Below, one piece after another: positions 14,172-49,351 of a DNA stretch of 64,000 nt; within the stretch, counting starts at the first letter, position 1, and every line of letters begins with the position of its first letter. Made by a program: the position numbers and the translations under genes. The notes beneath the pieces were generated by a model, which did not search any database, was not told the DNA's origin, and was given only the letters and a program-made list of their open reading frames with translations. The stretch is taken from the NCBI RefSeq assembly GCF_014961315.1, contig NZ_CP063141.1:1-64000 (forward strand). Reading direction: 5' to 3'. The DNA comes from Thermoflavifilum sp. GTDB taxonomy: Bacteria > Bacteroidota > Bacteroidia > Chitinophagales > Chitinophagaceae.

Positions 14172-15746
14172 ATGAACAAACGTCTAAACCTGCTCATCAT
14201 TGTGGTATGTTTTCAGCTGGGCATGCTGGCCATGCATTTCCAGACACAGGCTCAGGAACGCCGGGGACCGCAACCTCCTGCAACCGAAAATGCAGGTCAG
14301 CAGAAAGACAAACTTCCGCCTGCACAACCAGACGTAACCACCACGGGTAGTGTAACCGTCGAAGGTCAGCGAATTGACTATCAGGCTGTGGCCGGCACCA
14401 TTCCCTTGCTGGATGAAAATGAACAGGACACAACGGCACGTATGTTTTATGTAGCCTACTTCAAGCAGGGAGTCAGTGATGTTTCGACCCGCCCGCTTAC
14501 GTTTCTGTACAATGGCGGACCCGGATCAGCCACCATCTGGCTACACATGGGCGCTTTCGGGCCGCGGCGCGTGGTTATCGACAGCACCATACACATGCAT
14601 GGAGCTCCGTATGAACTCGTGAATAATGATTATAGCCTTTTAGACGCCACTGATCTGGTTTTTGTGGATGCACCCGGAACAGGTTTCAGCAGGGTAATGC
14701 CCGGGAAGGAAAAGGATTATTATGGCGTTGATCAGGATGGAAGGGCCTTCAGCCAGTTTATCATGCGTTTCATCACCAAATACGGCCGATGGAACAGTCC
14801 GAAATTTCTGTTTGGCGAAAGCTACGGCACCACCCGATCGGCTGTGCTTTCAAGCATGTTGCAAAACATGTATGATATTGATTTGAACGGTGTGATATTG
14901 CTTTCGCAAATCCTGAGCTTCGATAATTCCATCGATGGTCCCTCACGCAATCCGGGTAACGATATGCCCTATATTCTGGGCCTACCCACATTTGCAGCTA
15001 CAGCATGGTATCATCATCAGCTTCCCAAGAACCATCCCGACCTGGAAGCTTTCATTCGTGAAGTTGAAAATTTTGCTACAGGTGCCTACGCACAGGCCCT
15101 CATGAAAGGTGCTACACTCGACCCCAATACCTTTAACCAGATTGCCGAACAACTGCACCAATACACCGGACTGGATGTAGATTATATCAAAAAAGCTAAC
15201 CTGCGCGTCGATGGCGGCGAATTTGAACAACAACTGCTCAACAAACAGGGGCTCACAACCGGCAGACTGGATACCCGATTCTCGGGCCCTTCACTGGACA
15301 TCCTCAGCCAGCGTGCTAACTATGATCCCCAGTCAGAAGCGATCAGCGGTGCTTATGTATCGCTTTTCAACGATTATGTGCGCAAGGTGCTGAAATATGG
15401 CCAGAACATGGATTATCATCCCACCATCTACGGTCGCATGCAGTGGGACTGGACACATGGAGGTTCAAGAATGGGCGTGAATGTAATGAATGATCTGGCA
15501 ACTGCTATGAAAAAGAACCCAACGTTGAAAGTTTTGCTCAACGCTGGCTATTATGACCTGGCAACGCCCTTCTATGAAGGAGTCTATGAATTGCAACACC
15601 TGCCTATTCCGAACGATTTGCAGAAAAATATTGCATATGCTTTCTACGAATCCGGGCACATGGTGTATTTGCACGTACCTTCACTCAAGCAATTACACGA
15701 TCGCACCAAGCAATTTATTGAATCGTGCTATACACCCGCACATTGA
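14172..15746 (+). CDS. secreted S10 family serine carboxypeptidase
   Basis: 524 residues with an N-terminal signal peptide (hydrophobic run LLIIVVCFQLGMLAM, cleavage near TQAQ) and a Pro/Gln-rich linker of ~40 residues. Alpha/beta-hydrolase peptidase motifs: oxyanion block FLYNGGPGSATIWLHMGAFG, VDAPGTGFSRV, nucleophile S217 in FLFGESYGTTR, D462 in NAGYYDLATPF, H496 in YESGHMVYL. It removes C-terminal residues from peptides in the periplasm or outside the cell. It is a single gene between two hairpins, with its own promoter candidate. Length and triad are intact. Confidence 0.9.
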   Translation: MNKRLNLLIIVVCFQLGMLAMHFQTQAQERRGPQPPATENAGQQKDKLPPAQPDVTTTGSVTVEGQRIDYQAVAGTIPLLDENEQDTTARMFYVAYFKQGVSDVSTRPLTFLYNGGPGSATIWLHMGAFGPRRVVIDSTIHMHGAPYELVNNDYSLLDATDLVFVDAPGTGFSRVMPGKEKDYYGVDQDGRAFSQFIMRFITKYGRWNSPKFLFGESYGTTRSAVLSSMLQNMYDIDLNGVILLSQILSFDNSIDGPSRNPGNDMPYILGLPTFAATAWYHHQLPKNHPDLEAFIREVENFATGAYAQALMKGATLDPNTFNQIAEQLHQYTGLDVDYIKKANLRVDGGEFEQQLLNKQGLTTGRLDTRFSGPSLDILSQRANYDPQSEAISGAYVSLFNDYVRKVLKYGQNMDYHPTIYGRMQWDWTHGGSRMGVNVMNDLATAMKKNPTLKVLLNAGYYDLATPFYEGVYELQHLPIPNDLQKNIAYAFYESGHMVYLHVPSLKQLHDRTKQFIESCYTPAH

Positions 15747-15772
15747 TATCTCACATGATGTCCATCTTCCGG

Positions 15773-15803
15773 CAACAGGATCAACGTACAGATGATCCTG
15801 TTG
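15773..15803 (+). terminator. terminator hairpin after the S10 peptidase gene
   Basis: A perfect 11-bp stem CAACAGGATCA / TGATCCTGTTG with a 9-nt loop, followed by TTGTATTAC, starting 26 nt after the stop codon. Its stem shares the CAACAGG/CCTGTTG core with the hairpin after cysN. Confidence 0.7.
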
Positions 15804-15961
15804 TTGTATTACACATCAGAGAAAAGCAACAAAAGATAGGAAGATACCATTTCTATTTACGTGCTTGAAAATGCAAAAACCGATATCCATAAGCTGGTAC
15901 AGGAAGAATTGAACAAACACGCAGATGATTGGTAAGATATAACCAGATGCTGATGGGACAA

Positions 15962-16429
15962 TTAACTTACAGGATCCACATCAGGAATAATGCGTACACT
16001 TCTGTAATCGGCATTTTGTTGCAAGTTTGTACAACAGGATAGCACATGTTCTTTGTAAACCTGCAAACGGTTCGAGTGGCGCGGTAATCGAATGAGTATT
16101 TCCTGAAGATATTCATTACGAATCCGACTCACCGGAGGTGTGGCCGGACCGGTAACGAACGGATAAGACATGGTCGACTCAGCAGCAAATAGGTCGGAAA
16201 GACGCTGTGCAAGCGCATGTGCAGCTGCTGTTACTTTTTCCTGTCGCGTATGCTTGAGGGTAATTTTCATCAGGCGTACAAACGGCGGATAAGCAAATTG
16301 TTCGCGAGCTTCGATTTCCATCTGGAAAAAAGCTACATAATCATGTGCCATCACCTGTGCTAAGCACGGGATGACGAAGCTGATATGCCTGTATGACAAC
16401 AAGCCCTTTTTCACCTTTGCGTCCCGCAC
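15962..16429 (-). CDS. priA: PriA, C-terminal fragment in shifted frame
   Basis: Real PriA sequence begins near AQVMAHDYVAFFQMEIEARE and runs through YPPFVRLMKITLKH to the stop; the ~30 residues before it in this frame are shadow. It is the C-terminal domain that packs on the helicase core. It has no start signal of its own. Confidence 0.75.
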   Translation of the reverse strand: MRDAKVKKGLLSYRHISFVIPCLAQVMAHDYVAFFQMEIEAREQFAYPPFVRLMKITLKHTRQEKVTAAAHALAQRLSDLFAAESTMSYPFVTGPATPPVSRIRNEYLQEILIRLPRHSNRLQVYKEHVLSCCTNLQQNADYRSVRIIPDVDPVS

Positions 16430-18449
16430 GACCGCTCACCTGTTCCATGAGCTGAAAGGCCCGTTCATTGACCCGAAAATCTGGATAATTCAACAAGCTA
16501 TCTGCCAGCAAGATGCCGACCAACCCCACCGAATCAAAATCCAATCCTTTTACTACCATTTGCGTACCCACCAGAATATCAATACCGCGTTGCTCAAAAC
16601 GGGTAATCAACTGATGATAGCTGTCTTTCCTGCGCATGGTATCCAGATCCATCCGCGCGATGCTGGCTTCAGGAAAAAGGATGTGCAATTCGTCTTCTAT
16701 TCGTTCGGTTCCAAAGCTTTTATGAATCATCGCATGGCTGCCGCAAGCCTGGCATTGCGCAACAGGAGGATATGTTCTTCCGCAATAATGACAAACCAGC
16801 TGATGCACCGATTTATGATAGGTTAATGCCACATCGCATTGTGTGCAATGAGGCACCCAGCCGCATATCTGACAAATTTGCGATGGAGCATATCCTCTTC
16901 GATTTTGAAATAAAATCACCTGTTTTTGTTGCTGCAGGGTGCGTCGGATAGCATCTTCAAGAAGCGGGGTGATGTGTCGTTCACTGCGCTGATGCGGAGC
17001 TATGGTGCGCATATCGGCCAGCATCATATCCGGCAAAGCCATTTGCCCGTATCTTTCTTTTAACATCACATATCCATATTTGCCCTGCATAGCCTGATAA
17101 TAAGTTTCTACGGCGGGCGTGGCAGATCCAAGAATTACACGGGCATTGAGCAGATGAGCATAATAAATAGCTGCATCCCTTGCATGATAACGAGGAGCAG
17201 GATCCTGCTGTTTGAATGAGGCATCATGTTCTTCATCCACAATAATCAAGGATAATTTGCAAAAAGGCAACCATAAAGCTGAACGCGAACCCACGATTAC
17301 CTGCAGACTTCCTTCCCGCACTTTATTCCACATCTCCACCCGTTCATTATGACTTAACCTGGAATGATATACGCCCACCTGATTGCCAAGATATTGTTGC
17401 AAACGACGAATCATTTGTGCGGTTAATGCAATCTCGGGGAGTAAGTACAGCACCTGTTCTCCTCTGGCTATCGCTTCCCGTATCAACGATACATAAATCA
17501 GCGTTTTACCACTCGACGTAACACCATGCAGCAACACCACAAGTTTCTCGCGCATCCATTCGCGAATCTTTTGCACGCATTCCTGTTGCGATTGACTGAG
17601 GTGAAGTTGCTGCAGGGCACCGTCATAAGTGAATACGATTCTGTCGATCGTTTGCTTGACTTCCTGAAAAATGCCTTTATCCACCAATGCTTTTAATTGT
17701 GCATGGCTGCTTCCCGTTTGTTCCAGTAAATCTTTTTTCCGAACCCATCTTTGCTTTTGCCTGAGTTCGTAAAATTTCATCAACAATTGCAACTGCCTGG
17801 GAGCTTTTTCAAGCTGGTCGAACAATTGATGCAAAGCCTGTTCCTCGGCATAAGCGGGCGACAAAAGGATATAGGTTTCCAGTTTAGGACGATAGGATTC
17901 ACGAATAGATTCGTATGCCATACAGATGTGTTGATCAATCAACGACTTCACCACTGCTTGAGCCGAGGTGATGGAGCTGTCGCCAAGCAATTGCTGTACT
18001 TCTGCAAGCGTTAATTCCTGTTTCACCGCGAGTGCTTCCACAACAAGATAGGCTTCGTCTGTCAGCTGTGCGGCGAGCGATGCAAGCGACGCATCATTTG
18101 CGAATGCAGCATCGAGAAGAATAAGGGTTTCACTGCTGAGTTTCAAATGCGCCGGCATGGCTATGTTCATCACTTCGCCTTCTGTACAGGCATAATATTG
18201 AGCCACCCATTCCCAGAACTGGAGTTGATGCGGCCACACTACAGGATAGTCGTCCAGTCTGGATAGAATAGGCTTTACGGTATAAGCTGTGGGTGGTTGA
18301 TCGTGAATGCGTTTGATGATTGCAGCATATTTGCGGCGTTTACCGAATTGCACCACCACGCGCATGCCCGGTTGCAGCTCCATACCTTCGGGAATCTGAT
18401 AAGTATAAAGTTTAGGCAGGGCGAGTGGTAAGATCACATCGGCAAACAT
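16341..18449 (-). CDS. priA: PriA, N-terminal fragment with helicase and zinc motifs
   Basis: 702 residues up to the frameshift. It opens MFADVILPLALPKLYTYQIP (3' DNA-end binding domain), then Walker A LHGVTSSGKTLIYVSLI, DEEHDASFKQQ (DEAH box), GSATPAVET, the eight-cysteine zinc region CQICGWVPHCTQCDVALTYH to CQACGSH, and the helicase motif VSGRAGRKGEKGLVVIQAYQ. The last ~10 residues are out of frame. Confidence 0.85.
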   Translation of the reverse strand: MFADVILPLALPKLYTYQIPEGMELQPGMRVVVQFGKRRKYAAIIKRIHDQPPTAYTVKPILSRLDDYPVVWPHQLQFWEWVAQYYACTEGEVMNIAMPAHLKLSSETLILLDAAFANDASLASLAAQLTDEAYLVVEALAVKQELTLAEVQQLLGDSSITSAQAVVKSLIDQHICMAYESIRESYRPKLETYILLSPAYAEEQALHQLFDQLEKAPRQLQLLMKFYELRQKQRWVRKKDLLEQTGSSHAQLKALVDKGIFQEVKQTIDRIVFTYDGALQQLHLSQSQQECVQKIREWMREKLVVLLHGVTSSGKTLIYVSLIREAIARGEQVLYLLPEIALTAQMIRRLQQYLGNQVGVYHSRLSHNERVEMWNKVREGSLQVIVGSRSALWLPFCKLSLIIVDEEHDASFKQQDPAPRYHARDAAIYYAHLLNARVILGSATPAVETYYQAMQGKYGYVMLKERYGQMALPDMMLADMRTIAPHQRSERHITPLLEDAIRRTLQQQKQVILFQNRRGYAPSQICQICGWVPHCTQCDVALTYHKSVHQLVCHYCGRTYPPVAQCQACGSHAMIHKSFGTERIEDELHILFPEASIARMDLDTMRRKDSYHQLITRFEQRGIDILVGTQMVVKGLDFDSVGLVGILLADSLLNYPDFRVNERAFQLMEQVSGRAGRKGEKGLVVIQAYQLRHPVLSTGDGT

Positions 18450-38848: not shown

Positions 38849-40897
38849 ATGAAACGAACCACAAGCATGCATGCGCCATCATTCAGGTTTTTGTTTTACA
38901 TCGGGGTGTGGTGCGTTACCACGATATCTACAAGTGTAGAAAAATCATGGGCTCAGCAACGTTTGCATCCCTCCTATACCGTACTCGACTGGAAAGGCAG
39001 CCAGATGCTTCATGATTTTCTCATCCAGAAGCTTCACCGGTGCTATCAACATCGCGACAGCCTGTTACAGGAGGCATGCCGGCATCACGATATCGCGTCA
39101 TATCAACAGCATGTGCTGCAACAATATCTTACGCTGCTGGGCGCTATGCCTGCCAGAACCGCCTTGCATGCACGCGTGCTGGATACCTTATGGGAATCGG
39201 GTTACCGCATCGAAAAACTGGTATTCGAAAGTACCCCGCATCATCATGTAACCGCAAATCTTTACGTCCCTGCTGGAAAAGGGCCCTTCCCCGGCATCCT
39301 GTTTTGCTGTGGACATGAAGCCGCAGCCAAAGCCACCCTCACCTATCAGCAAACGGCGATCCGACTGGCATTGCAGGGCTTTGTGGTGCTGGTTCCCGAT
39401 CCCATTGCACAGGGCGAACGTGTGCAACTCACCGATACGGCAGGCCACCCACTCACCCGAGGCAGCACCACCGAGCATACCCTGCTTACTTCCGGTACGC
39501 TGCTGGTGGGCAACAGCGTGGTGAAAACCGAACTCTGGGACAATATACGGGCCATCGATTACCTGTGCACACGCGCGGAAGTGGACAGCTCGCGCATCGG
39601 CTGCATCGGCAATTCAGGTGGCGGAACGCAGGTGGCCTATCTCATCCCCGTCGACCGCCGCATCAAAGCAGCCGTCATCAGCAGCTATGTCACCCGCAGG
39701 GAAAGATCATTAGCGTTGTTGGGACCGCAGGATGGCTGCCAGTGGCTGCCCGGCGAAGGGAAGGCAGGACTGGACATCAGCGATTACCTCATCATGTTTG
39801 CACCCAGGCCTGTATTGATACTGGCCGGGAGATATGATTTCGTGGATTTCAACGGCACATGCGATGTATATCACGAACTGCAACAGGTCTATCGCTTGCT
39901 GAAAGCGCCCGATCATATCGGCCTTTTCGCTTACGACGATGGTCATGGCATCCAGACGCCCAAACAGCTGGCTGCTGTGCAATGGTTCCGACGCTGGTTG
40001 CATCCCGCTCGCCAGCCGGCAGAGGTACAGAAGCTGCAGACCCTGCCTGAAGCGGCGTTACAGGTTACCCCTACCGGGCAGGTCAATACGAGCTTTCCGG
40101 ATGAAATCACGCTGCCCGCACAGGCACGTTCGCTGGCCGAAGCCTGTCGGTTGGCACGGAACGCCTGGCTGCACGACAGCACCCGCGCGCAATATCAACA
40201 GATGCTCAGGCAAAAGCTGGGCCTGCCCACATCGCTCGCTCCCCTCACCGATACCCAGCAGATGGGAAGTTTTACGAAAGACGGCTTTCATTTCCAGAAA
40301 ATCATCTTACGCGGCGCCGGATTCCCACCCATCCCCTGCATCGCAGGATTCCCGGAAAGCACATCACCTGTAACCCGCATCCGGATATATTTTTCCGAAA
40401 AAGGCCAATCGTTCATCCTCGACAATGATACGCTGTTACAGCGGCTGGCCGCAGGCGGCTATGCCCTGCTGACGGCCGATTTGAGGGGCATGGGCGAAAC
40501 CACCGACATCTCCACGCAAAACGATCCCAAATACATGAATCGGGAATACCGCAATGCCATGCTTTCCCTGTTTGTGGGCCTACCCCTGCCCGGACAACGC
40601 GTGGAAGATGTGCTGCATGTGTTGCAATTCGTGGATCAATACACCCCCTGGCGACAGCTGCCCGTGGAGATCGACGCCGGCGGACCCGCAGCCGAAGCTG
40701 CTTTGCTGGCCGCCGCACTGGACAACCGCATCCACCAGCTCAACCTGTCGAACCTGCCGCATCGTTTGACGGACTTTCTTTTGCATTCCACCACATCCGA
40801 TCAACTGAGCTATGTTATCCCCGATGCGTTGGAAAATATGGACTTCCCGGAGATCATCCAGTTTATAAGTCCGCAAAAAATACATCTGCAGCCTTGA
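38849..40897 (+). CDS. secreted alpha/beta hydrolase (acetylxylan-esterase-like) with degenerate second hydrolase half
   Basis: 682 residues. An N-terminal signal segment precedes residue ~37 (WAQQ). The first hydrolase domain (~100-395) has FPGILFCCGHEAAAKATLTY, the nucleophile elbow GCIGNSGGGTQVAY, an acid in ILAGRYDFVDF and H in YDDGHGIQTPKQ. Family members deacetylate xylan or oligosaccharides. The second half (~425-680) again looks like an alpha/beta hydrolase (GYALLTADLRGMGETTDIST) but its elbow reads DAGGPAAEAALLAA without a serine, so it is probably structural. The substrate is inferred weakly. Confidence 0.72.
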   Translation: MKRTTSMHAPSFRFLFYIGVWCVTTISTSVEKSWAQQRLHPSYTVLDWKGSQMLHDFLIQKLHRCYQHRDSLLQEACRHHDIASYQQHVLQQYLTLLGAMPARTALHARVLDTLWESGYRIEKLVFESTPHHHVTANLYVPAGKGPFPGILFCCGHEAAAKATLTYQQTAIRLALQGFVVLVPDPIAQGERVQLTDTAGHPLTRGSTTEHTLLTSGTLLVGNSVVKTELWDNIRAIDYLCTRAEVDSSRIGCIGNSGGGTQVAYLIPVDRRIKAAVISSYVTRRERSLALLGPQDGCQWLPGEGKAGLDISDYLIMFAPRPVLILAGRYDFVDFNGTCDVYHELQQVYRLLKAPDHIGLFAYDDGHGIQTPKQLAAVQWFRRWLHPARQPAEVQKLQTLPEAALQVTPTGQVNTSFPDEITLPAQARSLAEACRLARNAWLHDSTRAQYQQMLRQKLGLPTSLAPLTDTQQMGSFTKDGFHFQKIILRGAGFPPIPCIAGFPESTSPVTRIRIYFSEKGQSFILDNDTLLQRLAAGGYALLTADLRGMGETTDISTQNDPKYMNREYRNAMLSLFVGLPLPGQRVEDVLHVLQFVDQYTPWRQLPVEIDAGGPAAEAALLAAALDNRIHQLNLSNLPHRLTDFLLHSTTSDQLSYVIPDALENMDFPEIIQFISPQKIHLQP

Positions 40898-41078: not shown

Positions 41079-41086
41079 TAATTTTG
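41079..41086 (+). promoter_or_regulatory. -7 box of the helicase-methylase module
   Basis: TAATTTTG, an exact TAnnTTTG match, 22 nt upstream of the helicase ATG and preceded by an A/T-rich stretch. A host-type promoter drives an imported coding block. Confidence 0.5.
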
Positions 41087-41108: not shown

Positions 41109-42230
41109 ATGCCCGAGGTTTTTGACAACGTTAATTTAAAACTATCCGAGGGGCTGAATCAATTAAAACCTGATGTCCAGTCGTGCGCGTTCTGCGTGGG
41201 GTACCTCAACCTGCGCGGTTGGGATCAATTGGCCGACCTCGTGGACAGGTTGCAGGGTGGCACAGAAGACGCCGCCTGCCGCCTACTCGTCGGCATGCAC
41301 CGCCCACCGGAAGAGGAGATGAAAGCTCTCGCCGGCCTCAAGCGCCGCGATGAGACAGAGGAAGGCCCCATGCTCGCACAGCTCAAGCACCGCATGACCG
41401 AGAGCTTTAAGCAGCAACTGGAATTCGGCGTGCCCTCCACCCAAGCTGAACGCACCCTCCAGCGCCTGGCCGCACAGCTTCGCGCACGCAAGGTGTTCCT
41501 CAAGGCGTTCCTGCGCTATCCGCTGCACGCTAAACTGTACCTCGTTCGCCGTAGCGATCCCGTCACTCCCCTCATCGGCTTCGTTGGCAGCAGCAACCTC
41601 ACACTCGCCGGACTTTCGCAGCAGGGCGAGTTGAACGTGGATGTGGTCGAGCAAGATGCCGCCAAAAAACTGCAAGCCTGGTTCGACGACCGCTGGCGTG
41701 ATGAGCTGGCCATGGACTTGAGCGACACGCTCGCCGAGCTGATCGAGACCAGTTGGGCGCGCACCGATCTGGTTCGCCCCTACCTGGTCTATCTCAAAAT
41801 CGCCTACCACCTCTCGGAAGAAGCGCGCCAGGGCGAACGCGAGTTCCGCCTACCGCGCATCTTCAGCGAGAAAGGCACGCCACTGCTCGATTTTCAGGAG
41901 CGAGCCGTGTCGCTTGCGGCGCACTACCTCTACCGCCGTGGCGGCGTCTTGCTTGGCGATGTCGTGGGACTGGGCAAAACGCTCATGGCCACCGCCATTG
42001 CCCGCATCTTCCAAGAGGACGACCAGAGCAACACGCTGGTCGTGTGCCCGCCGAAGCTCGCGCCCATGTGGGAGCAGTACCTGGAGACCTACGAAATCAA
42101 CGGCCGCGTACTCTCGTTCGGCAGAGTCATCGAAACGCTGGGGCGCTACGACGCGCCGCGCTACCGGCTGCTCGTCATTGACGAAAGCCACAACCTGCGC
42201 AACCGCGAGCAAAGCGCTACCGCGCCTTGA
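41109..42230 (+). CDS. helicase fragment 1: PLD-like domain and ATPase motifs I-II
   Basis: 373 residues. It opens MPEVFDNVNLKLSEGL. PLD-like HxK at H140/K142 (LHAKLYL) with G160-SSN (FVGSSNLTLAGLSQQGELNV); only one such motif is visible. Q-motif LLDFQERAVSLAAHY, Walker A with K290 (GDVVGLGKTLMATA) and DESH at 358-361 (LLVIDESHNLRNRE). It ends out of frame in EQSATAP at a TGA. Confidence 0.75.
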   Translation: MPEVFDNVNLKLSEGLNQLKPDVQSCAFCVGYLNLRGWDQLADLVDRLQGGTEDAACRLLVGMHRPPEEEMKALAGLKRRDETEEGPMLAQLKHRMTESFKQQLEFGVPSTQAERTLQRLAAQLRARKVFLKAFLRYPLHAKLYLVRRSDPVTPLIGFVGSSNLTLAGLSQQGELNVDVVEQDAAKKLQAWFDDRWRDELAMDLSDTLAELIETSWARTDLVRPYLVYLKIAYHLSEEARQGEREFRLPRIFSEKGTPLLDFQERAVSLAAHYLYRRGGVLLGDVVGLGKTLMATAIARIFQEDDQSNTLVVCPPKLAPMWEQYLETYEINGRVLSFGRVIETLGRYDAPRYRLLVIDESHNLRNREQSATAP

Positions 42231-42941
42231 GCGACTACATCGAGCGCAACGAGCCGCGCGTGCTACTGCTCACCGCCACGCCGTACAACAAGCACTTCAG
42301 CGACCTCGGCAACCAACTGCGCCTGTTCCTCGACGAAAACCAGGATCTGCACGTGCGCCCCGAACGCTTCTTCCAGGCGTGGGCAAAGCTCGGAAAAAAC
42401 GAGATGGACTTTGTCACGCAATTTCAGACCTCGCCGCGCTCGCTGCGTGCCTTCGAGCAAAGCACCTCCCCGGAGGATTGGCGCGACCTGATGCGGTTGT
42501 TCCTCGTGCGGCGCACGCGCCAGTTCATCATCCGCCACTATGCCCATTTCGACGAACAAAAGCAGCGCTACTACGTCTTGCTGGGAGACAAGCCCGCATA
42601 CTTTCCGCTGCGTGTGCCGAAGCGGCTTGCCTTTACGATCGCCGAGGACGACCCCACCGACCAGTACGCGCGCCTGCTTCGCGAAGATGTCGTGCAGGTG
42701 ATCGAGCAGCTTGAGCTGCCACGTTATGGGATGGCGCAGTACCTTGTCGCTGATGCCGATCGCCGTGCGAAAGGCGATGAAAAGCGCATCCTCGACAACC
42801 TCAACCGCGCCGGCCGTCGCCTGATCGGCTTTTGCCGCACGAACCTTTTCAAGCGGCTCGAATCGAGCGGCTCGAGCTTCCTGCTCTCGGTGCATCGGCA
42901 CGTCCTGCGCAACCTCGTCACGCTCCACGCGCTCGAAAGGG
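42227..42941 (+). CDS. helicase fragment 2: ATPase motif III and linker region
   Basis: The valid sequence continues directly from fragment 1 (upstream codons in this frame read KRYRALSDYIERNEPRVL). It contains motif III VLLLTATPYNK and LRLFLDENQDLHVRPERFFQ. A TTG at 42227 is only an apparent start. Beyond about 42935 the frame (RGCPCPSARRM...) is shadow, although it stays open to 43309. Confidence 0.65.
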
Positions 42942-44559
42942 GTTGCCCGTGCCCATCGGCACGCAGGATGCCGCTATGCTGGACACGGCCGTCAGCGATG
43001 CCGACGAAGAGTTCGCGGTCGCTGAGGAAGACATTGCCGCACCGCTCGACGAAAGTGCTGCCGAGAGCGCAGCAGCAGGAGCCGCTCAAGACCCACTGGC
43101 AGCGTTCAAAGCGCGCGCTGCCGCTGTGTACGAGACTTACGCCCAGCAATACCGCGACCGCTTCGATTGGCTCGCTGCGAAATTCTTCCGTCCGCAGCTG
43201 CAGCATGCCCTCGAAGCCGACGCTCAGGCTCTGCTCGGCATCCTCGCACGCATTGGCACGTGGGACCCCAAACGCGATACCAAGCTTGAAGAACTCACCA
43301 GTCTGCTGACCACGCAGCACGCCCGCGATAAAGTGCTCATCTTCACGCAGTTCGCCGACACCGCGCAGTACTTGAAACGCGAGCTGAGCAGGCGCGTCGT
43401 CCGCGATCTGGAGGTCGTGACCAACCAGACGGGCGATCCGGTCGCGCTGGCGCGCCGCTTCAGCCCCAGTTCCAACGGCGGCCTGCGCGCAGGCGAACAG
43501 GAGCTACGCATCCTCATCGCCACCGATGTCCTCGCCGAGGGCCAGAACCTGCAAGACGCCCACATCATCGTCAACTACGACCTACCCTGGGCAATCATTC
43601 GCTTGATCCAGCGCGCCGGCCGCGTGGACCGTATCGGACAACAGCACGACACAATCCTCGTTTACTCATTCCTCCCTGCCGATGGGGTCGAGCGCATCAT
43701 CCAGCTGCGCCAGCGACTTTTCTGGCGGCTTCAGCAAAACCAGGAAGTCATCGGCACCGACGAAACCTTCTTCGGCGAGGAGGCTGCCGCCAAACTGCGC
43801 GATCTCTACACCGAAAAAGCTGGCACGCTCGACGACGACCCATCCGACGAGGACATTGACCTGGCCAGTCTGGCGCTGCAAGTCTGGAAGAGCGCCTCTG
43901 CTGCCGATCAAAAGGAAGCCGTGGCACTGCCCCCCATCGTCTCTGCCACGCGCGCGGTCCCCGAGACCGCCGATCCAGCCCAGCATCCGCCCGGGGTGAT
44001 CACCTACCTGCGCTACCCCGATGGCACCGACGCGCTCGTGCGCGTGGACCAGCGCGGTGTGCTGGTGTCGCAGTCCATCTCAGCCATCTTTGGCGCGGCC
44101 GCCTGCGCGCCCGACGAGCCGCCGCTCGAGCGTGCAGCAAACCATCATGAACTCGTCGCCCGCTGCGTGGAACTCGCCACTGAAGAGCAAACCGCCCTTG
44201 GCGGGCAGCTCGGCTCGCTGCGCAGCGTCCGTCGCAAGCTCTACGAGCAGCTCAAGCGCTATCGCGAGCAACTTCTATCCAAGCCCACGCTCTTTGCCCG
44301 CGAGACGCTCGAGCAGCTCGATGGCGTGCTCGACCTGCTCTGGAAATTCCCGCTCCGGCGCACAGCGCAGGATGCCATCAGCCGGCAGATGCGGCTCGGC
44401 ATCACCGACGAGGCATTGCTCGAACTGGTGCTGCGCCGCGCCGCCGACGAGAACCTCTGTGAAGTGACCGCCGAAGAGACCCAAGCGCCAGCCGAACCCA
44501 GGATCATCTGCTCGATGGGACTGGTGTGGTCAGTAAATCCCGCAGCAAAAAACGGATGA
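42942..44559 (+). CDS. helicase fragment 3: helicase C-terminal domain and tail
   Basis: The real sequence begins at KGLPVPIGTQDAAMLDTAVS. Superfamily-2 motifs: KVLIFTQFADTAQYLKREL, ILIATDVLAEGQNLQDAH, IRLIQRAGRVDRIGQQHDT. A charged helical tail of ~250 residues follows. The frame is open upstream to 42832 but that part is shadow of fragment 2. Confidence 0.7.
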
Positions 44560-44566
44560 TCAACAA

Positions 44567-46057
44567 ATGGACATAAGCACAATTCTCTACCGCATCGAAA
44601 ACATCCTGAACAGCGGCAATTCGCCAGATAAACTCGGCAAGTTGTTCTGCCAGATTCTGAATTGGGGTGCGCCGAGGGGCTTGACACCGCGCCTTTTGAA
44701 CATTGGCGCGCCGATGAGCCAGAACCTGACGATCCAGCCTGTAGCGCAGCTCTCGGGCCTGCCGGTCTATCGCGTCGTCTGGCCCGGGGATCGGCTTCCG
44801 GGCATCACCGCCCGCCGCGCCGTGCAGCGTGCGCTCAAGCCGATGCATGCCGAACATCTCCTTTGCTACATCACCCAGGACGCCCGCCAGCTTGCCTTCA
44901 CCTGGGCACGCGAGCGACCCGACGGCAAGATCGAACTTCGCACGCTCCCCTACGAAGCCGGCTCGACAGCCCGCACCACCATCGAACGCCTCGCCGAACT
45001 GGCGTTCACACTCGACGAGCTGGATCATGGCCAGCCGCCCATCACCACCGTTACCGATAAACTCGACCGAGCCTTCGATGTCGAAGCGGTCACCCGGCGA
45101 TTCTTCGAAGATTACAAAAAAGTCTTCGCCACACTGCAAAATCAGCTCGTTAACGCCACCGGTGATAAGGTCTGGGCGCACGACTATGCCCTGCAACTAC
45201 TCAACCGGCTGATGTTCCTTTACTTCATCCAGCGCAAACGCTGGCTCGGCGACAACCCACAGTTTATCGGCAATTTCTGGCGCGCATACAAGGCGTCCAA
45301 CCAGCCCGCCAATAGCTTCTTCGAGCGCTGGCTCTCCGTGCTGTTCTTCGAGGCATTCAACAACAAATTCCACGGCGGCCACCGGCAGTTCCCCGAGGAG
45401 ATTCGCTCAGCACTTCAGCTTGCGCCGTATCTCAACGGTGGACTCTTCACGCGCAATCAGCTCGACGATGCCTACAGCGTGACGTTGCCCGACGCGTTCT
45501 TCGCCACGCTCTTCGATGAGTTCGACGGCAGCAGTCCCGGCTTCCTCGAACGCTACAACTTCACCATCGCCGAATCCACCCCGCTCGACATCGAAGTCGC
45601 CGTTGACCCCGAAATGATCGGCAAAGTCTATGAGTCGCTGGTCAATATCACCTCCGAGGGAATCGTCGAAGAAGACCAGCGCGGCTCGGCCGGCATTTTC
45701 TACACCTCTCGGGTCGAAATTGACTTGATGTGTCGCCTCGCGCTCGTGGACGCTCTCGCCAATCGGCTCGGCGCAGACAAAAAACCGCTCCTCTACGACG
45801 CCGTCTTTGCTTACGAACCAGCCGAGAAAGACGCCGCCGACGCCGCGCTCGCCGCGCACAATCTCTGGCCTGAACTCGACCGGCAGCTCCGCGACATCAC
45901 CATTCTGCGATCCCGCCTGCGGCTCCGGCTCGTTCTCTGGTCGGCATGTTGCTTGTGCTCGACGACCTCCAAGCCCGCGCCAATGCCCAGCTCGGCCGCG
46001 AAGAAACCCCGTACGAACGCCGCCGCCGCATCATCGGCGAGCAGCTCTACGGCGTAG
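44567..46057 (+). CDS. methylase fragment 1: N-terminal region up to motif I
   Basis: Valid to about residue 446 (PELDRQLRDITIL). It includes KVYESLVNITSEGIVEEDQR and GSAGIFYTSRVEIDLMCRLA, the typical approach to motif I in Eco57I-like enzymes. Motif I itself, CDPACGSGSF, is in a third frame at 45906-45935; after it this frame is shadow. Confidence 0.7.
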   Translation: MDISTILYRIENILNSGNSPDKLGKLFCQILNWGAPRGLTPRLLNIGAPMSQNLTIQPVAQLSGLPVYRVVWPGDRLPGITARRAVQRALKPMHAEHLLCYITQDARQLAFTWARERPDGKIELRTLPYEAGSTARTTIERLAELAFTLDELDHGQPPITTVTDKLDRAFDVEAVTRRFFEDYKKVFATLQNQLVNATGDKVWAHDYALQLLNRLMFLYFIQRKRWLGDNPQFIGNFWRAYKASNQPANSFFERWLSVLFFEAFNNKFHGGHRQFPEEIRSALQLAPYLNGGLFTRNQLDDAYSVTLPDAFFATLFDEFDGSSPGFLERYNFTIAESTPLDIEVAVDPEMIGKVYESLVNITSEGIVEEDQRGSAGIFYTSRVEIDLMCRLALVDALANRLGADKKPLLYDAVFAYEPAEKDAADAALAAHNLWPELDRQLRDITILRSRLRLRLVLWSACCLCSTTSKPAPMPSSAAKKPRTNAAAASSASSSTA

Positions 46058-48276
46058 ATGTGATGGACTGGGCCGTCCACGTCGCCGAACTGCGCCTCTG
46101 GCTGCAACTGGTCGTTGAGACCGAACTCAAGCCCGCCGAGTTGAAGTTTCGCCCACTGCTGCCCAATCTCTCGTTCAAAATCCGCTGCGGCGATAGCCTC
46201 GTGCAGGACATCGGCGGCATAGACTTCGGTCTTCACCGCGCACATCTGGACATCTCGCCTCATCTCAAAGGCCGCCTCACGCAGCTCAAAGGCAAAAAAC
46301 TCCGCTTCTACCAGGGCGAACAAGGCTTGCGCGAAGCCGATCTTAAAAAAGAAGAACTCGACCTCTTCCGCGACATTCTCGACCACAAACGACACGCGCT
46401 GCAAAACCATATCGCCGCGCTCACCCGGCGAGATCGAATCGCCAGCCGAGCAAGGCGCGCTGCCGGGAATGGTGGTTGCGACCAATCAGGCTGCGCAACG
46501 CCGCATCAGAGCAGCTCCGCGCCGAACGCGAGGGAGAAGCAAGCCGAACTCGACCGCATCACACGCGCGCTCGGTGCACTGCGCAGCGCGCAGCAGGTCC
46601 CGTTCGTCTGGGACATCGCCTTTGTGGAGATTTTCGAGGGCGACCGCGACGGCTTCGACATCGTCATCGGCAACCCGCCCTACGTTCGGCAGGAGATGAT
46701 CGCTGCGCCCCGGCTCGATCCCAACGACTTCGGCGGCGAAACGTCTGACCGCTGGAAAGAGCAGAAGAAAGCCTACAAAGCCAAACTCCAACAGTCGGTG
46801 GCCGCCGCCTGGCCGCGCTTCTTCCGTTACAAACCCGGCAAGGCCGACTTCCGCAAGCTCGACGGCAAAAGCGACCTCTACATCTACTTCTACCTGCACG
46901 GGCTGGCGCTACTGAACCCGCAGGGCAGCTTTTGCTTCATCACCTCCAACTCATGGCTCGACGTCGGCTACGGCGCGGACTTACAGGAGTTTCTGCTCAA
47001 ACACAGCCACGTCAAATTCATCCTCGACAACGAGCGCAAGCGCTCCTTTGCGCAGGCCGACGTCAACACCATCATCACGCTGCTTGCCCCGCCCGACGAC
47101 CGCCGCGAGCGCGGACTGGAGCAAACCGCGCGCTTTGTGATATTCACGGTGCCGTTCGAGGAGGTGCTCAGCGCCGAGACGTTCAAAGCGCTCGAGGCCG
47201 CCACTGAACGCCAGCGCACCAACCGCTGGCGCATCACCGTGGTGCCCCAACGCCAGCTCTTCGAGGAAGGCCTCGTCCGCGAAGAGGACGAGGAAGAAAC
47301 GCAAAGCAAACCCAAGCAATCGCGCCGCACACTCTTCAAGACCGCCCGCTACGAAGGCAACAAGTGGGGCGGCAAGTACCTGAGAATGCCAGAGCTTCTT
47401 TGGCGCTTGATTAATGAGAATAAGCTGGTTCCTCTCGCCCAAGTATCCCGTCTTGAATATGGCAACAAGCCTGGACTTGTAGACTTCTTCATATTGACAG
47501 ACAACCGAATCAGCGACTTCGGCATCGAGAAAATATTCTTAAAGAGAATTATCACTTCTACTGAGGAGATTGAGAGGTTGGTCGTCCTGTCTAAACATGC
47601 GACCAAATGGGTTTTTGTTTGTCCACTACCACTTGAAGAGCTGATCCGTCAAGGTTACAAAGGGGCAGCGGCATACATCCAATGGGGAGCCAAACAAGTT
47701 ACTAAGAAGGGAGCGCGTCACACTGTTGAGGAAGTCCATTGGCCTCGTGTTCCTTCGGTCAAGGGTAATCGCCCTGAATGGCACTGTATCTCGCTTAAAG
47801 AGCCTGGCGACTTCATCGTCCCACTGTTAATTCGTGAGCGGTTCTTCTTTTCAGCTAACCCCGATGGCCTACCCGATACAAACATGTTCTTCCACGGAAG
47901 ATTCTTAGACCGGAAAAAAGTGCAAATTGGAGTATCTATCATCAACTCCACGCTGGTATATCTGCTTCTTGAAATCTTAGGCAGGCATAATATCGAAGGT
48001 AGATTCAACATCTACGGCCCAGAATTGAGGAACCTTCCTATTCCCAATCCTGAGCTATTTGATAGCGATACGCACAAAAAAGTTGTTGATAGTTTTGAAA
48101 AACTTGCGGAAAGAAGTGTGATGAAAATATTAGAGGAAATCCACCAACCCGACCGTCGCGCCCTTGACGACGTGGTGTTCGATGTGTTGGGATTGACGGC
48201 CGGGGAGCGGGAGGCGGTGTACGAGGCGGTCATCGAGTTGGTCCGCACGCGGCTGGAGAAGGCAAGGAGTGTGTAG
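45946..48276 (+). CDS. methylase fragment 2: motif IV and target recognition domain
   Basis: It begins GMLLVLDDLQARANAQLGRE, the normal continuation of motif I. Between 46424 and 46536 three insertions pass the reading through all frames; outside that stretch this frame is correct. Motif IV is DGFDIVIGNPPYVRQEMI. The C-terminal ~300 residues (LVPLAQVSRLEYGNKPGLVD, INSTLVYLLLEILGRHNIEG, GPELRNLPIPNPE) are the specificity domain. Confidence 0.7.
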   Translation: MLLVLDDLQARANAQLGREETPYERRRRIIGEQLYGVDVMDWAVHVAELRLWLQLVVETELKPAELKFRPLLPNLSFKIRCGDSLVQDIGGIDFGLHRAHLDISPHLKGRLTQLKGKKLRFYQGEQGLREADLKKEELDLFRDILDHKRHALQNHIAALTRRDRIASRARRAAGNGGCDQSGCATPHQSSSAPNAREKQAELDRITRALGALRSAQQVPFVWDIAFVEIFEGDRDGFDIVIGNPPYVRQEMIAAPRLDPNDFGGETSDRWKEQKKAYKAKLQQSVAAAWPRFFRYKPGKADFRKLDGKSDLYIYFYLHGLALLNPQGSFCFITSNSWLDVGYGADLQEFLLKHSHVKFILDNERKRSFAQADVNTIITLLAPPDDRRERGLEQTARFVIFTVPFEEVLSAETFKALEAATERQRTNRWRITVVPQRQLFEEGLVREEDEEETQSKPKQSRRTLFKTARYEGNKWGGKYLRMPELLWRLINENKLVPLAQVSRLEYGNKPGLVDFFILTDNRISDFGIEKIFLKRIITSTEEIERLVVLSKHATKWVFVCPLPLEELIRQGYKGAAAYIQWGAKQVTKKGARHTVEEVHWPRVPSVKGNRPEWHCISLKEPGDFIVPLLIRERFFFSANPDGLPDTNMFFHGRFLDRKKVQIGVSIINSTLVYLLLEILGRHNIEGRFNIYGPELRNLPIPNPELFDSDTHKKVVDSFEKLAERSVMKILEEIHQPDRRALDDVVFDVLGLTAGEREAVYEAVIELVRTRLEKARSV

Positions 48277-48278
48277 CC

Positions 48279-48845
48279 ATGGCCTACAATCCTGAAAAGC
48301 ACCATCGGCGCAGCATCCGGCTGAAGGAATATGATTATTCCCTACCCGGGGCGTATTTCATCACCATCGTCACGCAAGACCGTGCGTGTCTGTTCGGCGA
48401 GGTCGCGGATGGGGAAATGCGGTTGAACGCATTCGGCGAAATCGTTGCCCAAACCTGGTACGACCTGCCCAACCATACGCCCAATGTGGCATTGGATGCA
48501 TGCATCGTCATGCCCAACCATATGCATGGGATTATCGTCATCACCGATGCACCTGTAGGGGCAATTCATGAATTGCCCCTGCATGCACGGCGTCGCATGT
48601 TGTTGCCGAAAATCATTGGACGGTTTAAAATGGTATCGGCCAAGGGCATCAACAAAATCCGGAATACACCTGGCATTCCCGTCTGGCAACGCAATTATTA
48701 TGAACACATCATTCGCAATGAGGATGCATTGAATCGGATTCGCCAATACATCACCGATAATCCCATGCGCTGGGCATCCGACCGCGAAAACCTCAACTGT
48801 ACAGACAGAAACCCCGACGAAGAGATGTGGTTTGGCAGCACATGA
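48279..48845 (+). mobile_element. REP-associated tyrosine (Y1/HUH) transposase gene
   Basis: 188 residues. N-terminal block HHRRSIRLKEYDYSLPGAYF, strand TIVTQDRACLFGEV, HUH metal motif in CIVMPNHMHGIIVI, and catalytic tyrosine region VWQRNYYEHIIRNEDALNRI. This is the RAYT branch of the IS200/IS605-type Y1 transposases, which process REP palindromes rather than moving as a classical insertion sequence. It starts 2 nt after the methylase stop. A 22-bp perfect palindrome lies inside the gene at 48558-48579. It is at the right edge of the GC-rich island and was probably imported with it. Confidence 0.85.
48554..48583. repeat. REP-like perfect palindrome inside the transposase gene
   Basis: The core at 48558-48579 (arms GGGGCAATTCA / TGAATTGCCCC) is a perfect 22-bp palindrome, extendable by four more pairs including one G-T wobble. 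It is translated in frame as VGAIHELPLHA. I saw no other copy in the window. Confidence 0.6.
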
Positions 48846-48964: not shown

Positions 48965-49351
48965 TCAGCTCTTTGCGGAGGAAAAGAACAACAGCTTCAC
49001 GGCTACCAGCAACATGAACCAGGCAAATATTTTTTTAATCACCTGATCCGGTAAATGCACCGCCAGCCTTCCTCCCAGATAACTCCCCACCAAATAGCCA
49101 CTGATGAGCAATAAGCAGGCGGATATATGCACATATCCGCGCAAATAATATTCTCGTGCTGCAAGTAATCCAATGGGTGGAATCATCATTGCCAGTGTGG
49201 TACCCTGCGCCAGATGTTGATTGAATCCAAAAATATACACCAGTGCAGGTACTACAATGATGCCTCCACCCACGCCGGCAAGTCCACCCAGATAACCCGC
49301 ACAGATGCCGAGCAGTAAAAATCCTGCTATGGTCAAGAAATGAAATTGCAT
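48965..49351 (-). CDS. half-size TSUP (TauE/SafE-like) permease
   Basis: 128 residues with four hydrophobic helices and one copy of the family repeat (AGYLGGLAGVGGGIIVVPAL). The usual TSUP length is ~250 residues with two repeats, so this half-size form would have to dimerise, as seen for other small members in Bacteroidota. Last gene of a minus-strand run behind a diheme cytochrome and DsrE-like genes, starting 21 nt after the cytochrome stop. Sulfite, sulfate or thiosulfate movement is the natural guess from context. Confidence 0.8.
   Translation of the reverse strand: MQFHFLTIAGFLLLGICAGYLGGLAGVGGGIIVVPALVYIFGFNQHLAQGTTLAMMIPPIGLLAAREYYLRGYVHISACLLLISGYLVGSYLGGRLAVHLPDQVIKKIFAWFMLLVAVKLLFFSSAKS

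What the first reader, a model, noticed from the sequence alone, without database searches (positions are those of the whole stretch)
41109..48845. Imported PLD-SNF2 helicase / Eco57I methylase module with a RAYT transposase
Seen: two large tandem genes 8 nt apart, at about 65% GC between host genes of about 45-50%, with a host-like -7 box in front and a Y1 transposase 2 nt behind. The helicase carries a PLD-like HxK/GSSN motif, so one protein may supply both translocation and nuclease. Known: SNF2 helicase plus adenine methylase pairs occur in class 1 DISARM and other restriction systems. Inference: a compact two-gene restriction or anti-phage system without drmA/B/C, possibly undescribed as a functional unit.
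Basis: partly seen in the sequence, partly recalled or inferred. Interest (0 to 1): 0.75.

Follow-up and report, generated by a model that had tools for sequence, protein, structure and literature searches.

The report
Broken two-gene restriction module, imported
A foreign pair of genes, a DNA-cutting motor protein and a DNA-marking enzyme, sits broken in this bacterium, but intact copies travel together across many bacterial phyla and on plasmids, which suggests a common and little-noticed two-gene defence system against foreign DNA.

Summary
The pair is real: a PLD-SNF2 helicase (41109-44559) and an Eco57I/BrxX-like adenine methylase (44567-48276), 63% and 58% GC in a 47% GC window, inserted between two genes that a sister species keeps 322 bp apart. 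Both genes are broken in this assembly (six frame changes read by eye; three by the method that finds one in 51.7 kb of host genes), so this copy is dead or badly assembled. Intact relatives are common. Of 74 related loci with sequence behind the helicase, 68 have the methylase within 3.5 kb downstream; the two proteins' distances correlate (r 0.74); plasmids carry the pair. PLD, ATPase and methylase motifs are conserved. No DISARM- or DUF499-type partner recurs beside it. Best reading: an ATP-dependent two-gene restriction-modification system in which the methylase recognises and marks sites, the SNF2 part moves along DNA and the PLD part cuts. I found no assay of it. A DprA-like third gene accompanies 24 of 41 scorable pairs, not this one. 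The RAYT transposase is not a conserved part. PADLOC files three of the four intact partner methylases that I compared as one-protein 'Type IIG' enzymes and has no specific model for the helicase. New variant of a known kind.

The parts
41079..41086 (+). TAnnTTTG box 22 nt before the helicase start; possible host-type promoter element
   Evidence: 30 in the window against 38 expected by chance, so weak
41109..44559 (+). PLD-SNF2 helicase gene, broken by two frame changes (about 42209 and 42937-42973)
41526..41597 (+). PLD half-site: HAK (41526-41534) and GSSN (41586-41597); these residues are invariant in 56 of 56 aligned relatives
41967..42191 (+). SNF2 motifs I and II: GLGKT (from 41967) and DESH (42180-42191)
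43609..43641 (+). SF2 motif VI QRAGRVDRIGQ
44567..48276 (+). Eco57I/BrxX/MmeI-like adenine methylase gene, broken by four frame changes (two around motif I, two around about 46420-46510)
45909..45929 (+). SAM motif I DPACGSG, lying in a third frame between two breaks
46672..46683 (+). Adenine-methylase motif IV NPPY
47386..48276 (+). C-terminal part, presumed target-recognition part: GC 45-47% over 47400-48200; 34% identity to L003 against 67-70% for the rest of the protein
   Evidence: the role is inferred
48279..48845 (+). RAYT-like (REP-associated tyrosine transposase) gene, the only match in the genome; neighbour, not part of the conserved module

Best explanation
The pair is a horizontally moving, two-component, ATP-dependent restriction-modification system; the copy in this assembly is inactivated or mis-assembled. 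Proposed mechanism: the methylase recognises a short site through its C-terminal part and puts N6-methyl on an adenine of host DNA (inferred from motifs and from fold similarity to BrxX and MmeI). On unmodified DNA the methylase, or the complex it forms with the helicase, loads the SNF2 motor (inferred from gene coupling and co-variation). The motor translocates along duplex DNA by ATP hydrolysis (inferred from intact SF2 motifs in relatives). The N-terminal PLD half-site dimerises and cuts when complexes meet or stall (inferred from published work on SauUSI and CglI). Shown here: gene pairing, correlated divergence, conserved catalytic motifs, purifying selection on the family, plasmid carriage, insertion into this genome, frame breaks. 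Not shown by anything that I found: cutting, a methylation motif, or phage protection for this pair.
For: Pairing: of 80 related loci, 74 have at least 600 nt after the helicase; 68 of the 74 have the methylase downstream within 3.5 kb, 54 with no called ORF of 80 aa or more between. On plasmids, 7 of 8 records viewed (of 25 matching) have an annotated DNA methyltransferase downstream; one is a 17.7-kb Rhodococcus plasmid. Correlated divergence: Mantel r 0.744 over 42 pairs, 0 of 5000 permutations as high, largest 0.319. Catalysis: PLD H-A-K and G-S-S-N, Walker A G-x-G-K, DESH and QRxGRxDR residues invariant in 56 of 56 helicases; methylase motif I and NPP in at least 93% of 41. Methylase model residues 176-542 align to BrxX (Z 11.3, rmsd 5.8, 280 aligned) and 129-544 to MmeI (Z 9.3, rmsd 5.1, 274 aligned); the helicase model aligns to SNF2 motors (SWR1 Z 18.2, rmsd 3.6, 389 aligned) and ZorD (Z 17.4, rmsd 5.1). 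Selection: dN/dS to L002 0.04-0.24 in four segments. Import: 322-bp empty site in G002; nearest relatives from three phyla.
Against: This copy cannot make either full-length protein as assembled. The window shows no defence island: the flanks look like ordinary metabolic genes (named by reading, not by model). Defence-neighbour enrichment was not tested. The Mantel test does not correct for shared vertical descent, and pairing is not always stable: L006, with a 66% identical helicase, has a neighbouring methylase of only 29% identity. Six of 74 loci lack a downstream methylase (L006 and L077 have one upstream, L053 a scrap at the contig edge, L009, L016 and L054 none seen), as does one of 8 plasmids. 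In Synechocystis 6803, which carries the pair on pSYSX, the assigned methylases that I recall do not include this one (one search names one of five; the rest is recall), so it may be silent there. The methylase's first 170 residues are unresolved (weak nuclease-like and epimerase-like matches, Z 5.0 or less), so a nuclease of its own is not excluded. 24 of 41 scorable relatives have a DprA-like third gene, so some versions may need three genes. The 80 loci are the best 80 of 235 by similarity to this helicase, not a random sample.
Confidence: 0.7

Rival explanations
1. The methylase alone is a single-protein Type IIG restriction enzyme, as PADLOC files it, and the PLD-SNF2 protein is only an auxiliary effector.
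For: PADLOC Type IIG models match partner methylases: Synechocystis 2662 bits over 1-1100 of 1100, L028 1040 bits, Rhodococcus ruber 922 bits; the window's intact relative L003 only 204. The N-terminal domain has weak nuclease-like matches.
Against: The helicase is the better conserved partner (mean identity 57% against 36%). The nearly invariant residues of the first 170 in 37 methylases do not form a D...ExK set. The two genes are nearly always together.
Confidence: 0.15
2. The pair is the remnant of a larger DISARM, BREX or BREX-related (Hma) system whose other genes were lost here.
For: The helicase has partial PADLOC matches to DrmD, BrxHII and HmaA, the methylase to DrmMI and PglX. Type-2 BREX-related systems have an HKD-SNF2 helicase and an N6 methylase (PMC12839542).
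Against: No DUF499 or MZB match in this genome. In 80 related loci the only gene family recurring in more than seven loci besides the pair is DprA-like. Four intact helicases score 130-142 bits for DrmD against a cut-off of 610.
Confidence: 0.07
3. The frame changes are sequencing or assembly errors in a high-GC stretch, and the system is intact in the living strain. This can hold together with the best explanation.
For: Apart from the breaks, 304 of 308 highly conserved helicase positions are unchanged and the four differences are mild.
Against: Host genes in the same window show one frame change in 51.7 kb. Recent inactivation would look the same; some relatives also show split genes (for example L004, L025, L081).
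Confidence: 0.35
4. The RAYT is the third gene of the module or the agent that brought it in.
For: It lies 2 nt behind the methylase. L003 has a RAYT (52.6% identical) 2.4 kb behind its methylase, and in L007 the methylase frame runs into repeated RAYT-like stretches.
Against: Only 2 of 80 related loci show any RAYT match; both are close relatives of the window's copy. RAYTs are common single-copy chromosomal genes (recalled), and this one is single copy.
Confidence: 0.07

Closest known systems
BREX-related (DUF499-centred, Hma) systems, type 2 (PMC12839542: abstract, outline, sections 28 and 30, passages seen)
   Same: N-terminal HKD/PLD nuclease fused to a SWI2/SNF2 helicase, with an N6-adenine methylase in the same operon
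   Different: They have a DUF499 AAA+ ATPase and, in type 2, DUF3780. No such family recurs beside 80 related pairs by similarity clustering, and this genome has no DUF499 match. PADLOC HmaA matches L003's helicase only in the motor part.
DISARM class 1 (DrmD, DrmMI, DrmA, DrmB, DrmC)
   Same: SNF2 helicase plus large adenine methylase as neighbours
   Different: DISARM also has DrmA and DrmB (recalled) and a separate PLD protein DrmC (PMC12458937, passages seen). Here PLD is fused to the helicase, DrmD scores are far under cut-off and the genome has no MZB match.
NCBIfam NF042964 'phospholipase D-like anti-phage protein' and PADLOC C3a139 'HKD+Snf2'
   Same: PLD plus SNF2 in one protein; best model matches of this helicase family
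   Different: 133-163 bits against a cut-off of 1100 for four intact relatives; 167 and 180 bits for C3a139 in L003 and Synechocystis. I did not find what these systems are in print.
SauUSI (PMC7913695, abstract and outline seen)
   Same: One protein with nuclease (PLD, recalled) and helicase-like ATPase; dimer through the nuclease domains; ATP-driven translocation
   Different: SauUSI is a stand-alone enzyme for methylated DNA; this family has a partner methylase
CglI and NgoAVII (PMC5737866 abstract; PMC4267653 listing)
   Same: ATP-dependent restriction with an endonuclease (BfiI-like PLD, recalled), a helicase-like ATPase and a methylase
   Different: Nuclease and ATPase are separate proteins, and the methylase is 5mC-type (PMC10734518, passage seen)
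Type IIG enzymes of the MmeI kind and BrxX/PglX
   Same: Methylase core fold and the motif I and NPPY arrangement
   Different: MmeI cuts by its own N-terminal nuclease (recalled); here such a triad is not among the conserved residues and a nuclease lies in the helicase. Intact methylases score at most 65 bits for PglX models against cut-offs of 400 to 900.

Membership tests
DISARM class 1 | DrmB-type protein with MZB domain (PF09369; link to DrmB recalled) present in the genome | tested here: not met
   No match; the control rings in 8 of 14 genomes
DISARM class 1 | Helicase passes the DrmD equivalog cut-off (610 bits) | tested here: not met
   Four intact relatives score 130-142 bits; the window's fragments 26 and 97
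BREX-related / Hma system | DUF499 ATPase (PF04465) present in the genome | tested here: not met
   No match; the control rings in 1 of 14 genomes
BREX | Methylase passes a PglX cut-off | tested here: not met
   L003 and Synechocystis methylases score at most 65 bits against 400-900
PbeABCD | CxC ABC ATPase and DndE homologue beside the HKD-helicase | not tested
   Not searched by model
Type IIG restriction enzyme (PADLOC sense) | Methylase matches a REase_MTase_IIG model over its whole length | tested here: inconclusive
   Near full-length for Synechocystis, L028 and R. ruber; partial (204 bits at best) for L003 of the window's clade
Type IIG restriction enzyme (PADLOC sense) | Active N-terminal PD-(D/E)XK nuclease | tested here: inconclusive
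   No D...ExK set among nearly invariant columns of 37 sequences; fold match weak
ATP-dependent restriction-modification system | SF2 motor, nuclease and methylase motifs all present and conserved | tested here: met
   met in the family, while the window's own genes are broken
ATP-dependent restriction-modification system | ATP-dependent restriction of unmodified DNA | not testable with these tools
   Needs expression and a cleavage assay
RAYT (REP-associated tyrosine transposase) | Passes the REP_Tyr_transpos cut-off | tested here: inconclusive
   63.2 bits against 80; an MPNHMH motif is present in the translation

The most novel reading that the evidence does not exclude
A widespread, unnamed type of ATP-dependent restriction-modification system made of just two genes: a BrxX/MmeI-like methylase that recognises and marks, and a PLD-SNF2 protein that moves and cuts, often with a DprA-like third subunit and swappable accessory genes. 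Databases hide it because they file the methylase alone as a one-protein Type IIG enzyme and have no model for the partner.
Probability: 0.45. Interest if true: 0.65.

Novelty: new variant of a known kind. Interest (0 to 1): 0.5.

Why it matters
If right, a two-gene system found in many bacterial phyla and on plasmids is being counted as a solitary Type IIG enzyme, and its likely nuclease is missed. It would be among the smallest ATP-dependent restriction systems related to BREX, DISARM and Hma, and so a good model for how a SNF2 motor with a fused nuclease is controlled by a methylase. It also raises a testable question: what a DprA-like protein does beside a restriction system.

Tried and rejected
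DISARM, BREX, Hma/BREX-related and Type IIG membership were tested and not adopted (see Membership tests). RAYT as part of the module was rejected on 2 of 80 loci. A promoter claim from the -7 box was not adopted. The REP-like palindrome inside the RAYT gene was checked: one place in this genome, three in G001, none in five others. A DNA-level search for the L028 helicase gene in 20,395 E. coli records found nothing. Phage records gave one partial match at E 1e-30 or better (Erysipelothrix phage, 59% of query, 26.6%). Synechocystis slr6095 turned out to be a different, Type I, locus; a paper on that methylome was not held, and a search for the likely neighbouring locus tags found one unrelated paper (listing only). 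Fold search of the methylase N-terminus gave no clear fold. The PLD part of the helicase model was hardly tested by the fold search. Passages of PMC2292703, PMC10853773 and PMC12715929 describe other HKD-helicase or restriction gene sets, not this pair.

Not done: a test of defence-island enrichment; a model-based scan of all neighbours; a search for PbeABCD parts; 17 of the 25 plasmid records were not viewed; the frame breaks could not be checked against raw reads. L002, the closest relative, is a fragment and was left out of the tree and the Mantel test, as were all loci with a helicase under 1050 or a methylase under 950 residues. The tree is a quick one without bootstrap.
Full report
WHAT IS THERE. 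The window is 64 kb of a 2.83-Mb, one-contig genome, at 47% GC outside the island. Between a hydrolase-like gene (38849-40897) and a TauE-like gene (48965-49351, minus strand; both named by reading, not by model) lie a PLD-SNF2 helicase gene, an Eco57I-type methylase gene 7 nt behind it and a RAYT-like gene 2 nt further on. GC is 62.7%, 57.7% and 51.7%.

IMPORT. In the sister species G002 the two flanking genes are neighbours with 322 bp between them, and the flanking DNA aligns up to 40830 and from 48964. In G001 the same gap holds two cytochrome bd oxidase-like genes instead (named by reading). Of 29 genomes searched (this one and 28 relatives), no same-genus genome has a close copy (26-30% over part of the motor at best); the best is G019, from another family of the order, at 44%. 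The nearest full-length helicases are L003 (Bacteroidota MAG, 70%), L007, L005 (Roseiflexus), L006 (Fimbriimonadales) and L008 (Anaerolineae). The window falls in a set of 6 rows with SH-aLRT support 98 that mixes Chloroflexota, Armatimonadota and Bacteroidota (quick tree of 73 rows). The partial contig L002 (Roseilinea) is closer still, 79-93% in its pieces. Several of these names suggest hot springs (recalled), so exchange within such communities is a fair guess.

BROKEN GENES. Read against intact relatives, the helicase changes frame at about 42209, just after DESH, and at about 42937-42973. The methylase changes frame before and after motif I, which itself lies in a third frame, and around a patch of about 46420-46510. 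That is six changes in 7.2 kb when read by eye. By tblastn alone three switches show, against one in the window over 42 host genes and 51.7 kb matched to G002, and one in G002 itself in the reverse test. Outside the breaks, 304 of 308 positions conserved in at least 93% of 72 relatives are unchanged in the helicase. dN/dS to L002 is 0.04 to 0.24 over four segments, an average over both lineages that cannot date the breaks. So the breaks are young or are assembly errors; the data cannot tell which. In 72 of the 80 loci the helicase frame is at least 1050 residues long.

A CONSERVED PAIR. One scan of the species-genome collection gave 235 relatives, of which the best 80 were kept. Of these, 74 have at least 600 nt of contig behind the helicase. 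68 of the 74 have the methylase on the same strand within 3.5 kb, 54 with no called ORF of 80 residues or more between. Six do not: L006 and L077 have a methylase upstream, L053 has a methylase scrap at the contig edge, and L009 (766 nt of contig), L016 and L054 show none. The other six of 80 end too soon to tell. The two proteins' distances correlate at r 0.744 over 42 pairs, window included, above all 5000 permutations (largest 0.319). This test does not remove shared vertical descent. Nor is the coupling strict: L006 has a 66% identical helicase and a 29% identical methylase. Among plasmids, 25 of 72,556 records match at E 1e-60 or better; I viewed 8, and 7 have an annotated DNA methyltransferase downstream. 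The exception is Dolichospermum. A 17.7-kb Rhodococcus ruber plasmid carries the pair beside replication and partition genes.

THIRD GENE AND ACCESSORIES. A DprA-like protein lies near 24 pairs, while 17 pairs with at least 4 kb of contig behind the methylase lack it, L003 and L007 of the window's clade among them; 27 contigs are too short to score. The 24 were counted whatever their contig length, so the share is slightly generous. Of three members tested by Pfam, all match PF02481, one over the cut-off (40.6 bits against 29.6) and two under it (25.9 and 20.0); the same three match PADLOC PsyrA, and one that I tried matches TIGR00732 DprA far under its cut-off. The rest follow by similarity clustering. 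This genome has one PF02481 gene, at 1.76 Mb. Rarer extras near the pair: an AAA_21 family (7 loci), in 4 of them with a DUF4276-like gene (under the Pfam cut-off), RhuM (4), YhcG nuclease (3) and KilA-N (3). On pSYSX and on a Picosynechococcus plasmid a VapC-family gene sits between helicase and methylase.

ANATOMY. In 56 aligned helicases the PLD residues H-A-K and G-S-S-N, the Walker A G-x-G-K, DESH and the QRxGRxDR residues are invariant. Only one PLD half-site is recognised, so a dimer would be needed for a full site (inference from PLD enzymes). The predicted L003 helicase (mean pLDDT 79) aligns to SNF2 motors and ZorD. The predicted N-terminal part of the L003 methylase (mean pLDDT 86) has a core like BrxX and MmeI and an unresolved first 170 residues. 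The C-terminal part of the window's methylase is only 34% identical to L003, while the rest is 67-70%, and its GC drops to 45-47%. This fits exchange of a target-recognition part, as in other restriction systems (inference).

DATABASE STANDING. PADLOC's best helicase model is C3a139 'HKD+Snf2', at 167 bits for L003 and 180 for Synechocystis. The methylases of Synechocystis, L028 and R. ruber match 'Type IIG' models at 2662, 1040 and 922 bits; L003 reaches only 204. The first is so high that the model was probably built on that very protein (inference). NCBIfam has no model near its cut-off for four intact helicases (best 133-163 of 1100 for NF042964; DrmD 130-142 of 610) or for two methylases (at most 65 bits for PglX). 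So a tool run would tend to report a Type IIG enzyme and miss the partner.

RAYT. It is the only match in the genome, and only L003 and L007 of 80 loci show any RAYT match. In L003 it lies 2.4 kb behind the methylase (15480 to 17908). In L007 the methylase's frame runs into RAYT-like and REP-like repeats. Both are close relatives of the window's copy, which is curious, but two cases prove little.

VERDICT. The pair is best read as an ATP-dependent two-gene restriction-modification system, imported and now broken in this assembly. The kind is known (BREX-related/Hma, DISARM, SauUSI, CglI); the minimal combination, its spread and its misfiling are what is new. Function is unproven.

Noticed in passing
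window 48558-48579: A perfect 22-base palindrome lies inside the RAYT gene; it occurs at one place in this genome, at three in G001 and nowhere in five other relatives. It may be a REP-like target of the RAYT.
   Followed up: partly
L007 11902-13401: The methylase reading frame runs into repeated RAYT-like and REP-like stretches in place of its C-terminal part.
   Followed up: partly
L113 7003-9375 (G001): The gap that holds the restriction module in the window holds two cytochrome bd oxidase-like genes in a sister species, so this intergenic site may accept insertions repeatedly.
   Followed up: no
window 15965-18449, minus strand: The only host gene with a frame change against G002: the match shifts frame around 16326-16417. 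Possibly a real difference or an assembly error.
   Followed up: no
L121 16939-19560 (Synechocystis pSYSX): Beside the pair lies a ThiF, E2 and multiubiquitin gene set, a kind of locus linked to bacterial ubiquitin-like conjugation (link recalled).
   Followed up: no
L052 15238-16984 and relatives L044, L055, L059: An AAA_21 (AbiEii-like) gene followed by a DUF4276-like gene recurs behind the pair and may be a separate embedded defence pair.
   Followed up: partly
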